Shown here: positions 13,005-57,676 of the stretch, one piece after another
Position numbering within the stretch: the stretch's first letter is position 1
How the letters are laid out: each line of letters begins with the position of its first letter
From: Methylorubrum extorquens
GTDB lineage: Bacteria; Pseudomonadota; Alphaproteobacteria; Rhizobiales; Beijerinckiaceae
Direction: 5' to 3'
Length of the DNA: 64,000 nt
Assembly (NCBI RefSeq): GCF_024169925.1
Contig: NZ_JALJXF010000001.1
Span: 998,001-1,062,000 of the forward strand
Program-made: the position numbers and the translations under genes
The notes under the pieces: model-generated
What the model was told of the DNA's origin: nothing
Database searches by the model: none
What the model saw: only the letters and a program-made list of their open reading frames with translations

Positions 13005-13382
13005 TCAGAGGTTCCGGACGTCGAGCGTGAAGGTGACGCGGGTCTTCGTGATGCCGTGTGGCTCTTCCGCGATGCCCTCGGCGCCGTTGCGGATCTGGAC
13101 GAGGCGATCTTCGTGCGCGTTTCGATCCGCGACCCACACCGGCATGGTGAACTCGGCGCTGGCGTCGCCGGTCTGGCGCACAAAGTCGTGGAAGGCACCG
13201 AGTTGCGCGGGCGTGAACAGGATCGAGACCTGCATCGCCGTGATGCGAAGGGTGAACTGCGGGCGCTGGCGCACCTTGCCCGACTGCATCGGCGAGCGGG
13301 CGGGGGCGAGCCCGAGGCTCGACACCTTGTGCGCATCGCGTTGCCCAGCAAAGGGCAGGCGGTTGGGCCACGCAAGGGGCAT
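13005..13382 (-). CDS. Minor tail protein at the gpM position (125 aa)
   Basis: A beta-rich protein of 125 residues; a middle segment (LRITAMQVSILFTPAQLGAF) and the layout resemble small minor tail proteins encoded right after the tape measure. Its start codon shares a base with the tape-measure stop (TGATG). It probably joins the tail tip complex. Confidence 0.6.
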   Translation of the reverse strand: MPLAWPNRLPFAGQRDAHKVSSLGLAPARSPMQSGKVRQRPQFTLRITAMQVSILFTPAQLGAFHDFVRQTGDASAEFTMPVWVADRNAHEDRLVQIRNGAEGIAEEPHGITKTRVTFTLDVRNL

Positions 13383-53614: not shown

Positions 53615-53939
53615 GGCACACGAAATCACCGACGAACTGCGCTTGATAGCCGCCATTGGCCGAGTCTCGCATCGGCAAATCATGGCTCGCGCCCGCGACC
53701 TTGCGGCCCCCTCCTATCGTGGTGATCCGAACTGGAGCTTCGCGATGCATCTATTCGGGCTCAGCGCCTTCCACTCGAAGTTCATTTGCGAGCGCATGGG
53801 CATCGATCCTGAAGGCTACGAGGTGCTGCCGCATCCGGAAAGCCTCTACCGCGACCCCGAGCCAGCATCCACCCTCCTCGCCCAGGCCGAAGCCCCTTCC
53901 ACCAGCGCAGGTCGTCAGGAGGGCGAACATCATGGCTGA
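53607..53939 (+). CDS. Hypothetical early protein (110 aa)
   Basis: A helical N-terminal half (ELRLIAAIGRVSHRQIMARARDL) and a later segment rich in Phe and Pro. The C-terminus contains PSTSAG, encoded by the 19-bp repeat at 53893-53911. Unknown role. Confidence 0.55.
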   Translation: MGEAHEITDELRLIAAIGRVSHRQIMARARDLAAPSYRGDPNWSFAMHLFGLSAFHSKFICERMGIDPEGYEVLPHPESLYRDPEPASTLLAQAEAPSTSAGRQEGEHHG

Positions 53940-54161
53940 TATCCCTGCTCAGATTGCGCGCCTTGAAGGCTTCACAGCCGAACAGCGAACGGCGCCCCAC
54001 GGTTCGGCCCGGATGTACGCGGCCATGATGACCGCAGGGGCAGCAGACGGCTACCGTCTCGCTCTAGCCGACGTGGCCGAATGGCTCCGCAAGCGCGGCA
54101 ACCACGGGGTTGCGGCAGACCTCGAAAGGCTCGGGCGGACCACCCCTTCCACCAGCGCAGG
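53893..54161. repeat. Gene-end repeat CCCCTTCCACCAGCGCAGG (two copies)
   Basis: The identical 19-mer is found at 53893-53911 and 54143-54161. Both copies encode PSTSAG near the end of two successive genes and are followed by strong ribosome sites (GGAGGG). A second match, GTCAGGAGGGCG, occurs at 52262-52273 and 53914-53925. Confidence 0.7.
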
Positions 54162-54180
54162 AGGGAAGACCGATGCGTAA
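53932..54180 (+). CDS. Hypothetical early protein (82 aa)
   Basis: Helical (IARLEGFTAEQRT, ADGYRLALADVAEWLRKRG). The C-terminus overlaps the next gene's start codon (54173). Function unknown. Confidence 0.55.
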   Translation: MADIPAQIARLEGFTAEQRTAPHGSARMYAAMMTAGAADGYRLALADVAEWLRKRGNHGVAADLERLGRTTPSTSAGGKTDA

Positions 54181-55264
54181 CGTGAAGTCAGGGGGCACTG
54201 ATCGGCCGAACAATGCGCTGGTGCCAACCATCACAGTAAAGCTGCGCCTATGTGACAAGCACGCAGGCGGCTTAAATAGGCAGGCAAGATCTGTAAATTA
54301 TGTTTGGAACTACTGCAACGAAACGCAGAAAAAGGCAGCTCAAGCCAAGCGTAAATGGCTATTCGCGCAGGATTTTATGAAGTTGACTGCTGGGTCAGGC
54401 GGGGATCTCGGTCTCCACGCCCATACAGTTCAGCGCGTTTGCCGCGAATACGACATCTCTCGCAAGAGAGATAGCAAGGCTTGGCTTCGCTGGAGGTCGA
54501 GAAAATCTCTTGGTTGGGTTCCGTTTAACACTGGGCATGTAAAATTTGATGGGTCTCGCTTTGTGTTCAATGGCGTTCACTACGAGCCGATGCATCTGCG
54601 CGAGCATTTGACGCCGGGCATGCGGTTTGGCGCTGGCAGCTTCAATTCCGATGCGAAAGGCCGCTGGTACATCAACGTTCCTGTCGCGGTGCCGTGTGCA
54701 GAGCCGAGGCCAGAGAATGCGGTCGGTATCGACCTGGGCCTGAAGACGCTCGCGACGCTATCTACCAGCGCGAAGATTGAGATGCCGCGCTTCTACCGCG
54801 AGAGCGAGAAGGCGTTGGCGACGTCGCAGCGCGCGAAGAAAACCAAGCGGACCAAGGCGATCCATGCCAAGGCGCGGAACCGCCGCAAAGACTTCCTGCA
54901 CAAGGCGTCTCTCGCTTTGGTGCAAGAATACGGGACGATCATCGTTGGCGATGTGAGCCCGTCAAAGCTAGCCAAGACCACTATGGCGAAGTCGATCTAC
55001 GACGCCGGGTGGGCAGGCTTCCGGCACATGCTCTCGTACAAGGCCATTAGGCATGGCGGGCGCTACGTCGAAGTCTCTGAGGCTTATAGTACCCGAACCT
55101 GTTCTGCATGCGGAAGCATCGGCGGCCCGACAGGGCTGAAAGGTCTCGGAATAAGAGAATGGCAATGCCTCGATTGCGGCTCGGTTCATGACCGGGACGA
55201 AAACTCAGCGCAAGTCATTCTCGGTATTGGGCTGAATACCCTTGCTGAAGGAGTCCAGAAATGA
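54173..55264 (+). CDS. tnpB: TnpB RNA-guided nuclease, IS200/IS605-type (363 aa)
   Basis: The RuvC-like core is clear: GIDLGLKTLATL with Asp187, DVSPSKLAKTTMAKSIYDAGW, a zinc finger CSACG ... CLDCG and DRDEN (Asp340-342). At the usual RuvC-II position the sequence is IIVGDVS, with Gly259-Asp260 where most TnpB have Glu-Asp; a nearby Glu in EVSEAYSTRTC may take its place, as reported for some TnpB groups. The first residues (MRNVK) come from the interrupted phage gene. No tnpA is present. Confidence 0.85.
   Translation: MRNVKSGGTDRPNNALVPTITVKLRLCDKHAGGLNRQARSVNYVWNYCNETQKKAAQAKRKWLFAQDFMKLTAGSGGDLGLHAHTVQRVCREYDISRKRDSKAWLRWRSRKSLGWVPFNTGHVKFDGSRFVFNGVHYEPMHLREHLTPGMRFGAGSFNSDAKGRWYINVPVAVPCAEPRPENAVGIDLGLKTLATLSTSAKIEMPRFYRESEKALATSQRAKKTKRTKAIHAKARNRRKDFLHKASLALVQEYGTIIVGDVSPSKLAKTTMAKSIYDAGWAGFRHMLSYKAIRHGGRYVEVSEAYSTRTCSACGSIGGPTGLKGLGIREWQCLDCGSVHDRDENSAQVILGIGLNTLAEGVQK
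54180..54187. repeat. Left copy of ACGTGAAG at the tnpB element
   Basis: ACGTGAAG at the left junction. The same 8 bp recur at 55310-55317, 1130 bp away. Removing one copy plus the intervening DNA restores a phage frame MRNVKSLAAEIEAD. Confidence 0.75.
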
Positions 55265-55317
55265 GGGGCGCTATGGATAAAACCGTGTCCCGCAAATCTG
55301 GGAGCAGCCACGTGAAG
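54188..55317 (+). mobile_element. tnpB element (IS1341/IS605-like, tnpA-less), about 1.1 kb
   Basis: Low-GC DNA containing tnpB lies between two copies of ACGTGAAG. A repeat at both ends could be a target duplication or a shared end sequence; IS200/605 elements usually make none. Boundaries are inferred. The element sits in the early operon immediately after a start codon. Confidence 0.65.
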
Positions 55318-55650
55318 AGCCTTGCCGCGGAGATTGAGGCGGACACGACCGCGCTTCGCCTCGCCGTCCACGCCTGGATCAGAGAGGACGCCCCGCTCGC
55401 CGCAAAGATGAACCTGCTACCAAAGCACGTTGATGCGCTGATGGCCCGCCTCGCCGCCGAGATCGCCGCCAACCAGAGCCGTGCCTTTGAGGACGGGGCG
55501 CGGTGGATGCGAGGGGTCGCGGCTCAGCGCGTAGTCCGGTCCTTTCGAGGCGACGCACCAACCGATGCCGAGCGGTACACGCTGAACGAGGCTGTCCGGT
55601 GCGTGCGGCTCCTCCCCCTCCAGCCCGAAGGGGAGCGGAGCGATGGGTAG
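55261..55650 (+). pseudogene. Phage early gene interrupted near its 5' end by the tnpB element
   Basis: From 55310 the sequence continues a phage frame (VKSLAAEIEADTTALRLAVHAW...), 112 residues after removal of the insertion; its original start and ribosome site (GGAGG, ATG 54173) now belong to tnpB. New starts could be ATG 55261, 55273 or GTG 55312 (with GGGAG upstream), so a shortened protein may still be made. The protein is Ala/Arg-rich and helical. Function unknown. Confidence 0.6.
55310..55317. repeat. Right copy of ACGTGAAG at the tnpB element
   Basis: ACGTGAAG, the second copy of the 8-bp sequence at 54180-54187, followed by AGCCTTGCC of the phage gene. Confidence 0.75.
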
Positions 55651-55885
55651 ACTCTCACCCTCCCGACTGCGTGTCCTGCGCACGCTCGCCGACTACCCGC
55701 AGGGCGGTTTGCTGACGCGCCAACTCGCCGAGAAAATCGGCCTGACGACCGCCAGCGCCCGCCGCCTATGCCAAGCCATGCGGTTCTTCGGCCTCGTGCT
55801 GCGGTACGAGACCAACGATCAACGCTGGTGGATCACCGACGCCGGCCGCGCCGCCCTCGCCGAACAGGAGAAGGGCGATGCGTAG
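55643..55885 (+). CDS. Winged-helix protein (80 aa)
   Basis: A MarR-like winged helix: LSPSRLRVLRTLADYP, GGLLTRQLAEKIGLTTASARRLCQAM as the helix-turn-helix and the wing LRYETNDQRWWITDAGRAALAE. It should bind DNA near the integration end of the operon and could regulate integration. Confidence 0.68.
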   Translation: MGRLSPSRLRVLRTLADYPQGGLLTRQLAEKIGLTTASARRLCQAMRFFGLVLRYETNDQRWWITDAGRAALAEQEKGDA

Positions 55886-57600: not shown

Positions 57601-57676
57601 TGGCTCCCCGAGCAGGACTCGAACCTGCGACAAAGCGATTAACAGTCGCTTGCTCTACCAACTGAGCTATCGGGGA
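57601..57676 (-). tRNA. tRNA-Asn (GTT), likely prophage attachment site
   Basis: The cloverleaf closes with acceptor TCCCCGA/TCGGGGA, T-loop GGTTCGAGTCC, anticodon GTT in ACTGTTAATC, and CCA is encoded (57603-57601). The 3' end faces the integrase gene. The host tRNA remains complete after integration, as expected when a phage carries the matching 3' segment. Confidence 0.95.

What the first reader, a model, noticed from the sequence alone, without database searches (positions are those of the whole stretch)
54173..55650. tnpB element has captured the start codon and ribosome site of a phage early gene
ACGTGAAG occurs at 54180-54187 and 55310-55317, flanking low-GC DNA with tnpB. Deleting one copy and the DNA between gives a continuous phage frame MRNVKSLAAEIEADTT with a strong ribosome site (GGAGG before ATG 54173). 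TnpB therefore begins MRNVK, codons of the broken gene, and is expressed from the phage early operon with no tnpA. The disrupted gene may restart at GTG 55312. It shows how a lone tnpB can live by promoter and start capture.
Basis: seen in the sequence. Interest (0 to 1): 0.78.

Follow-up and report, generated by a model that had tools for sequence, protein, structure and literature searches.

The report
TnpB element borrowing phage start codon
In a Methylobacterium-type prophage, a small gene for an RNA-guided DNA cutter (TnpB) sits just behind the start codon of a phage gene, appears to use that start signal itself, and seems to hand the interrupted phage gene a replacement start; parts of this layout recur in related phages.

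Summary
Two viral contigs (L086, L087) carry the uninterrupted site: same ribosome site and ATG, one copy of ACGTGAA(A/G), gene MRDVKSLAAEIEADTT. The window has a 1.13-kb tnpB element between two ACGTGAAG copies. The TnpB frame opens at phage ATG 54173; residues 1-15 are predicted disordered and the fold starts at residue 19. A better restart than GTG 55312 is ATG 55261: it overlaps the tnpB stop, follows AAGGAG, and reads 17 codons through the right end in frame with the phage gene. No Y1 TnpA gene was found in the genome. The canonical RuvC-II Glu is Gly, but a relocated Glu303 is invariant in relatives, so cleavage is plausible. The predicted guide matches L087 exactly. Four relatives sit at ATGAC start codons with tnpB in frame. 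Five of 19 members without the left-end hairpin, the window among them, carry 8-13 bp direct repeats, unexpected for IS200/IS605; a further repeat (L144) is backed by an empty allele (L225). Start capture is supported by sequence, not by expression data. How such copies insert is open; scars of TnpB-triggered repair are my bold reading.

The parts
54159..54164 (+). AGGAGG ribosome site of the interrupted phage gene
   Evidence: sequence; same in empty sites L086, L087
54173..54187 (+). ATGCGTAACGTGAAG: first five codons of the phage gene, now first five codons of the tnpB frame
54180..54187 (+). left copy of the 8-bp direct repeat ACGTGAAG
54173..55264 (+). tnpB ORF, 363 aa; RuvC D187, G259 in place of the canonical Glu, alternative Glu303, D342
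54188..54225 (+). remnant left end: in frame, without the left-end hairpin that some relatives have
   Evidence: by eye; motif not flagged
55248..55253 (+). AAGGAG, ribosome site for the restart, inside the end of tnpB
   Evidence: AGGAG at this place in 20 of 25 rows of the alignment (my count)
55261..55650 (+). restarted ORF: ATG overlaps the tnpB stop (ATGA); 17 element codons, then VKSLAAEIEAD... of the phage gene
55265..55311 (+). right end / putative 3' scaffold of the guide RNA, ending GGGAGCAGCCAC
55310..55317 (+). right copy of the direct repeat ACGTGAAG
55312..55331 (+). predicted 20-nt guide GTGAAGAGCCTTGCCGCGGA; identical in empty site L087, one mismatch in L086
56279..57523 (+). 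phage integrase, next to tRNA-Asn 57601-57676 (-)

Best explanation
A TnpA-less tnpB element lies in codon 5 of a small gene of a temperate phage. TnpB is most likely translated from the phage gene's own ribosome site and ATG 54173, with five phage-derived residues as part of a disordered tail (sequence shown, translation inferred). The element's 3' part carries AAGGAG and an ATG that overlaps the tnpB stop and reads through the right end in frame into the rest of the phage gene, so the phage protein is probably still made with a changed N-terminus (inferred). The transcript's 3' part should act as guide RNA whose guide is the flanking gene sequence; TnpB would then cut phage copies that still have the uninterrupted gene and so keep or spread the element among related phages (inferred from known TnpB biology).
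For: Empty alleles L086 and L087 with the same RBS and ATG. Fold starts at residue 19, residues 1-15 pLDDT under 50. D187, Glu303 and D342 are kept in 88 of 88, 87 of 87 and 87 of 87 rows with a letter there; position 259 is Gly in 87 of 88. Right-end motif like GGGAGCAG(C/T)CAC before variable flank in relatives. Guide 20-mer identical in L087; its first 16 bases occur once in the own genome, at the locus itself. Restart frame matches the flanking gene in 8 of 10 scorable elements (scored by hand). In-frame capture in L105, L107, L119 and L122, whose flanks join to a GcrA-like protein, an unknown protein, a DNA-methylase-like protein and a 191-aa ORF.
Against: No RNA or protein data. GTG 54221 could start TnpB without the phage ATG. 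L105, L107, L119 and L122 each also have an ATG close to the conserved TnpB core, so capture is optional there. The restart fails to match in L103 and L114. L086 has one guide mismatch, and the window's left flank reads TAAC where both empty sites read TGAC. The predicted fold of the 3' region is not clearly better than shuffles (z -0.97) and no Rfam family matched.
Confidence: 0.72

Rival explanations
1. An ordinary IS200/IS605-type insertion 3' of a TGAC motif whose left end later decayed; the 8-bp repeat is microhomology by chance and the open frame into the phage ATG is luck.
For: Relatives with a hairpin left end sit behind TGAC-like motifs and show only 4-7 nt of match, as chance gives. 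The conserved right end at C55311 and TRAC at 54178-54181 fit a canonical joint. TGAC is often a start codon anyway: 40 of 264 TGAC sites in 13 of these loci are ATGAC opening an ORF of 60 or more codons, and 4 of 13 elements there is not a significant excess (P 0.12). 14 of 19 hairpin-less members show no repeat of 8 or more.
Against: Six extra bases (GTGAAG) of flank on the left are unexplained by IS200/IS605 chemistry. Repeats of 10-13 bp at the same position occur in four other hairpin-less members, and in L144 an empty allele supports one.
Confidence: 0.3
2. TnpB starts at its own GTG 54221 and the phage ATG plays no role.
For: Nearest relatives L031 and L095 have no in-frame ATG and no GTG/TTG with an SD score of 3 or more before the core, so they may use a plain GTG; L093 has GTG-GC with SD score 4 there.
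Against: By eye the place of that GTG holds CCG in the window; I see no SD before GTG 54221, whereas ATG 54173 has full AGGAGG.
Confidence: 0.2
3. Domesticated, nuclease-dead TnpB (TldR-like) acting as an RNA-guided repressor for the prophage.
For: The canonical RuvC-II Glu is Gly; TldRs are known in prophages (PMC13418256, abstract read).
Against: An alternative Glu six residues before the zinc finger is invariant, as in the active-site type called Ealt (PMC10711439, passages read). The guide's 16-mer has no second exact site in the own genome; mismatched sites were not searched.
Confidence: 0.07

Closest known systems
IS200/IS605-family tnpB-only elements (IS1341-like, label recalled)
   Same: TnpB with OrfB_IS605 and Cas12f1-like zinc-finger domains, conserved right end abutting a variable flank; some relatives have hairpin left ends behind a TGAC motif
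   Different: No left-end hairpin, no Y1 TnpA in the genome, 8-bp direct repeat, tnpB frame opening at a phage start codon, in-frame restart for the interrupted gene
ISDra2 TnpB (PMC8612924, passages read)
   Same: Same protein fold by search; guide from the right flank expected; cleavage of the empty joint is proposed there
   Different: ISDra2 inserts 3' of TTGAT without target duplication, and its E278A mutant is compromised; that position is Gly here
Alternative-glutamate TnpBs and Fanzors (PMC10711439, passages read)
   Same: Glu six residues before the first CxxC (E303, C310), canonical Glu absent
   Different: RuvC1 motif is DLG, not DPG; 113 residues between that motif and the Glu, below the 120 of their search pattern; phage setting
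TnpB gene drive in plasmids (PMC11870625, outline and passages read)
   Same: Guide records the insertion site and would target copies without the element
   Different: Here the population would be phages; not tested
IStrons (PMC4227781, start of abstract seen in the listing)
   Same: Insertion made harmless to the interrupted gene
   Different: IStrons self-splice; here no Rfam match, and sparing would be by translational restart

Membership tests
IS200/IS605 tnpB-only element | TnpB protein with OrfB_IS605 and zinc-finger domains | tested here: met
   PF01385 and PF07282 over cut-off
IS200/IS605 tnpB-only element | conserved right end next to variable flank | tested here: met
   GGGAGCAGCCAC
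IS200/IS605 tnpB-only element | subterminal left-end hairpin | tested here: not met
   absent in the window (by eye; not flagged), present in several relatives
IS200/IS605 tnpB-only element | no target duplication | tested here: not met
   8-bp repeat against a single copy in empty sites
IS200/IS605 tnpB-only element | insertion 3' of a fixed motif | tested here: inconclusive
   TAAC at 54178-54181, TGAC in the empty sites; TGAC in several relatives
IS200/IS605 tnpB-only element | a Y1 TnpA in the cell that could move it | tested here: not met
   PF01797: 0 matches in own genome; 5 of 14 control genomes positive
IS607 element | serine TnpA next to tnpB | tested here: not met
   5 resolvase (PF00239) matches in own genome, none inside the window's range
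TldR repressor | loss of nuclease triad | tested here: not met
   D187, E303, D342 kept in all rows with a letter there
TldR repressor | guide matches a host promoter | tested here: inconclusive
   exact 16-mer found only at the locus itself in own genome; shorter or mismatched targets not searched
Alternative-glutamate TnpB | Glu six residues before CxxC, no canonical Glu | tested here: met
   definition from PMC10711439
Homing-type selfish gene | cuts the uninterrupted allele and is copied into it | not testable with these tools
   a target exists (L087); activity unknown
IStron | self-splicing intron | tested here: not met
   no Rfam match up to E 1 in 53800-55800

The most novel reading that the evidence does not exclude
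A branch of phage TnpB elements has given up TnpA-type ends and spreads as RNA-guided homing genes. TnpB cuts the uninterrupted gene; the right side is repaired from the element-bearing copy through flank homology while the left side is joined end to end, leaving a short duplicate of the first guide bases and a ragged left end. Selection keeps copies that use the phage start codon for TnpB and give the gene a coupled restart, so the element costs the phage little.
Probability: 0.25. Interest if true: 0.85.

Novelty: new variant of a known kind. Interest (0 to 1): 0.64.

Why it matters
TnpB genes without a transposase are common, and how they are expressed and persist is not well understood (recalled). 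This locus and its relatives suggest a concrete answer for phages: the insertion motif TGAC overlaps ATGAC start codons, so insertion can hand the element a start, while its right end carries a coupled restart that spares the gene. Natural empty alleles exist, so cleavage, expression and homing between laboratory phages can be tested directly. The direct repeats in some members without a left end point to an insertion route other than TnpA.

Tried and rejected
Rejected: dead TnpB (relocated Glu invariant). Rejected: an excess of start-codon insertions; TGAC sites are so often starts in these loci that 4 of 13 is not significant (P 0.12). The same call printed 0.046 for starts with an SD, but that value does not apply, because the start in L122 shows no SD in the printed context. 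Rejected as proof: the automated repeat count alone; 6 of 53 loci reach 8 nt against a null mean of 1.8 (maximum 6 in 60 draws), 3 of 53 reach 10 nt against 0.2 (maximum 1). That script mis-set the right end of L093, and L144 and L146, whose repeats were seen, were not among its rows with 7 or more. The unanchored scan gave p 0.71 for the window and 0.02-0.22 for L093, L094, L101 and L112. Rejected: a conserved RNA fold of the right end from 8 sequences; RNAalifold gave 6 pairs and not the hairpin I expected, and my coordinates for L111 missed its right end. Genome searches with TnpB in class (385 genomes) and order (397) found only the own genome at 1e-60; the left-end pattern was in 0 of 398 phylum genomes and in 7 viral stretches. 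The empty-site search for L101 found only its own contig. The binomial value for the restart test is not corrected for the shared ancestry of the right ends.

Full report
Observation. The window is bases 998001-1062000 of contig C1 of a 5.26-Mb genome; the two closest tnpB relatives among named genomes lie in Methylobacterium and Methylorubrum records. It holds a prophage: terminase, portal, major head protein, tape measure, repressor, RecT-like protein and DNA methylase by PHROG, integrase and tRNA-Asn beside it. ACGTGAAG occurs at 54180 and 55310 and not elsewhere on that strand. The tnpB ORF runs from ATG 54173 to the stop at 55262-55264.

Empty alleles. A scan of viral contigs with the downstream ORF returned 7 loci; two are close, L086 (99% identity) and L087 (95%), and both match only from residue 18 on. 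Their DNA has the same 30 bases before the ATG, the ATG, one copy of the repeat and the rest of the gene, giving MRDVKSLAAEIEADTT. L086 has one base change in the repeat (GTGAAA). More distant genes in the genus start with a few residues and then DPK(S/R)LAAEIEA.

Start capture. The seven closest relatives first match TnpB between residues 6 and 34, four of them at 19-20. In the AlphaFold model, made from 14 sequences, residues 1-15 are below pLDDT 50 and the first strand is 19-26. AGGAGG stands 8 nt before ATG 54173. GTG 54182 and 54221 are other in-frame options. Near relatives L031 and L095 show no in-frame ATG before the core; by eye the GTG-GCN that may start them corresponds to CCG in the window. 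I infer the native start is gone here, but the alignment is short.

Restart. ATG 55261 overlaps the tnpB stop, has AAGGAG 7 nt before it, and runs 17 codons to C55311 in the frame of the phage gene. One search printed 27 loci with at least 50% identity and a right-end match; a few of those right ends are doubtful (for example L096). Of the 27, 16 have an ATG at -8 to +2 of the tnpB stop that stays open to the right end. Reading the table by hand, 10 of the 16 have a clearly longest flank frame of at least 80 codons; the restart matches it in 8 (window, L095, L099, L101, L105, L107, L119, L122) and not in L103 and L114. The other six (L097, L100, L109, L117, L121, L123) were left out for lack of a long flank frame. 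With 1/3 per case this is about 0.003; L095 has two candidate ATGs and right ends share ancestry, so the value is optimistic. The window and L101 use frame phase 0, L095 phase 1, the other five phase 2; the restart fits in each.

Insertion motif and recurrence. Joining flanks at TGAC gives ORFs with ATGAC starts in L105 (173 aa; right piece matches GcrA, PF07750 2.5e-17), L107 (114 aa), L119 (234 aa; right piece phrog_799 methylase 3.1e-36) and L122 (191 aa), and a TTGAC joint in L099 (right piece N6_N4_Mtase 3.7e-46). In L105, L107, L119 and L122 the tnpB frame is open back to that ATG; L105, L107 and, in a variant form seen by eye, L119 have the hairpin left end, L122 does not. L097 also sits at ATGAC, with a joined frame of only 24 codons and its own start. 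L103 and L118 gave no convincing joint. This needs no special targeting: in 13 loci that I picked by their right ends, 77 of 264 TGAC sites outside the element are ATGAC and 40 of these open an ORF of 60 or more codons.

Direct repeats. Of the 27 loci, 5 have a match of 8 or more bases between the start of the right flank and the 260 nt upstream of the core: window 8, L093 12, L094 10, L101 13, L112 10. None of the five has the left-end hairpin; the other 14 of 19 hairpin-less loci show 4-7. The eight hairpin members (L097, L099, L103, L105, L107, L117, L118, L119) show 4-7. A wider automated count is weaker (6 of 53 at 8 nt, null mean 1.8; 3 of 53 at 10 nt, null mean 0.2). In L144, at 48% identity, a 10-bp repeat TGATTCGCTC has a single copy in the 80%-identical gene of L225, a second empty-site case. 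IS200/IS605 insertion does not duplicate the target (PMC8612924, passages). Counted from the right end the duplicated stretch is 6-11 nt, short of the 15 and 20-21 bp where ISDra2 TnpB cuts the two strands (same passages). That fits, but does not show, one-sided repair after a TnpB cut. In a tree of 32 rows the window groups with L031, L033, L093, L094, L095, L096 and L098 (100/100), none labelled with a hairpin and three with repeats; L101 and L112 lie outside in unresolved positions.

Active site. In 88 distinct TnpBs (106 loci collapsed to 87, plus the window) D187 is D in 88, position 259 is G in 87 and S in 1, and E303 and D342 are present in 87 of 87 with a letter there. ISDra2 TnpB E278A is compromised (PMC8612924, passages). 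PMC10711439 (passages) describes TnpBs and Fanzors with Glu six residues before the zinc finger, the spacing found here. I therefore expect an active nuclease.

Guide. The base after the conserved right end is G55312. GTGAAGAGCCTTGCCGCGGA is identical in L087 and has one mismatch in L086. Of 37 viral stretches with GTGARRAGCCTTGCCG only these two have TGAC directly in front. In 111 genus genomes the pattern GTGAARAGCCTTGCCG occurs in 5, once in the own genome; the four others have no TRAC directly in front.

Literature. Eight answered full-text searches of the open library listed no title or start of abstract describing start-codon capture by tnpB or target duplications in tnpB-only phage elements. 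Subscription papers are mostly not held, and I read none of the listed papers in full, so this is not proof of novelty. Plasmid gene drive by TnpB is described (PMC11870625, outline and passages), and prophage TldRs (PMC13418256, abstract).

Verdict. The capture of start and ribosome site is well supported as sequence anatomy and recurs in part of the family; its use, guide activity and the insertion route are inferred.

Noticed in passing
L094:4060-4105: TnpB reads through its right end into the last codons and stop of the host phage gene (LSQGASA), so it may have captured a stop codon as well.
   Followed up: partly
L033:4212-5996: The Sphingomonas tnpB match lacks the first strand and its frame is open 263 codons upstream (595 aa open frame), a possible fusion to an upstream phage gene.
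   Followed up: no
L221:3743-3790 and 13286-13308; L220: Left and right end motifs directly fused without tnpB, and what looks like an internal deletion derivative, in phage contigs.
   Followed up: no
L097, L103, L095, L093 upstream of tnpB: A GC-rich stem-loop (GGGCCGAAG...CCGGCCC-like, by eye) precedes tnpB in longer left ends, perhaps a 5' leader.
   Followed up: no
window:47068-48042: RecT-like annealing protein in the same prophage; could assist recombination-based spread.
   Followed up: no
window:55452-55511: About 60 bp coding AAEIAANQSRAFEDGARW is a near-identical module in otherwise different prophage genes (L004, L005, L088, L090).
   Followed up: partly
L225 and L142 (same contig IMGVR_UViG_3300033485_000012): A phage contig carries the empty L144-type site and a related tnpB elsewhere.
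   Followed up: no
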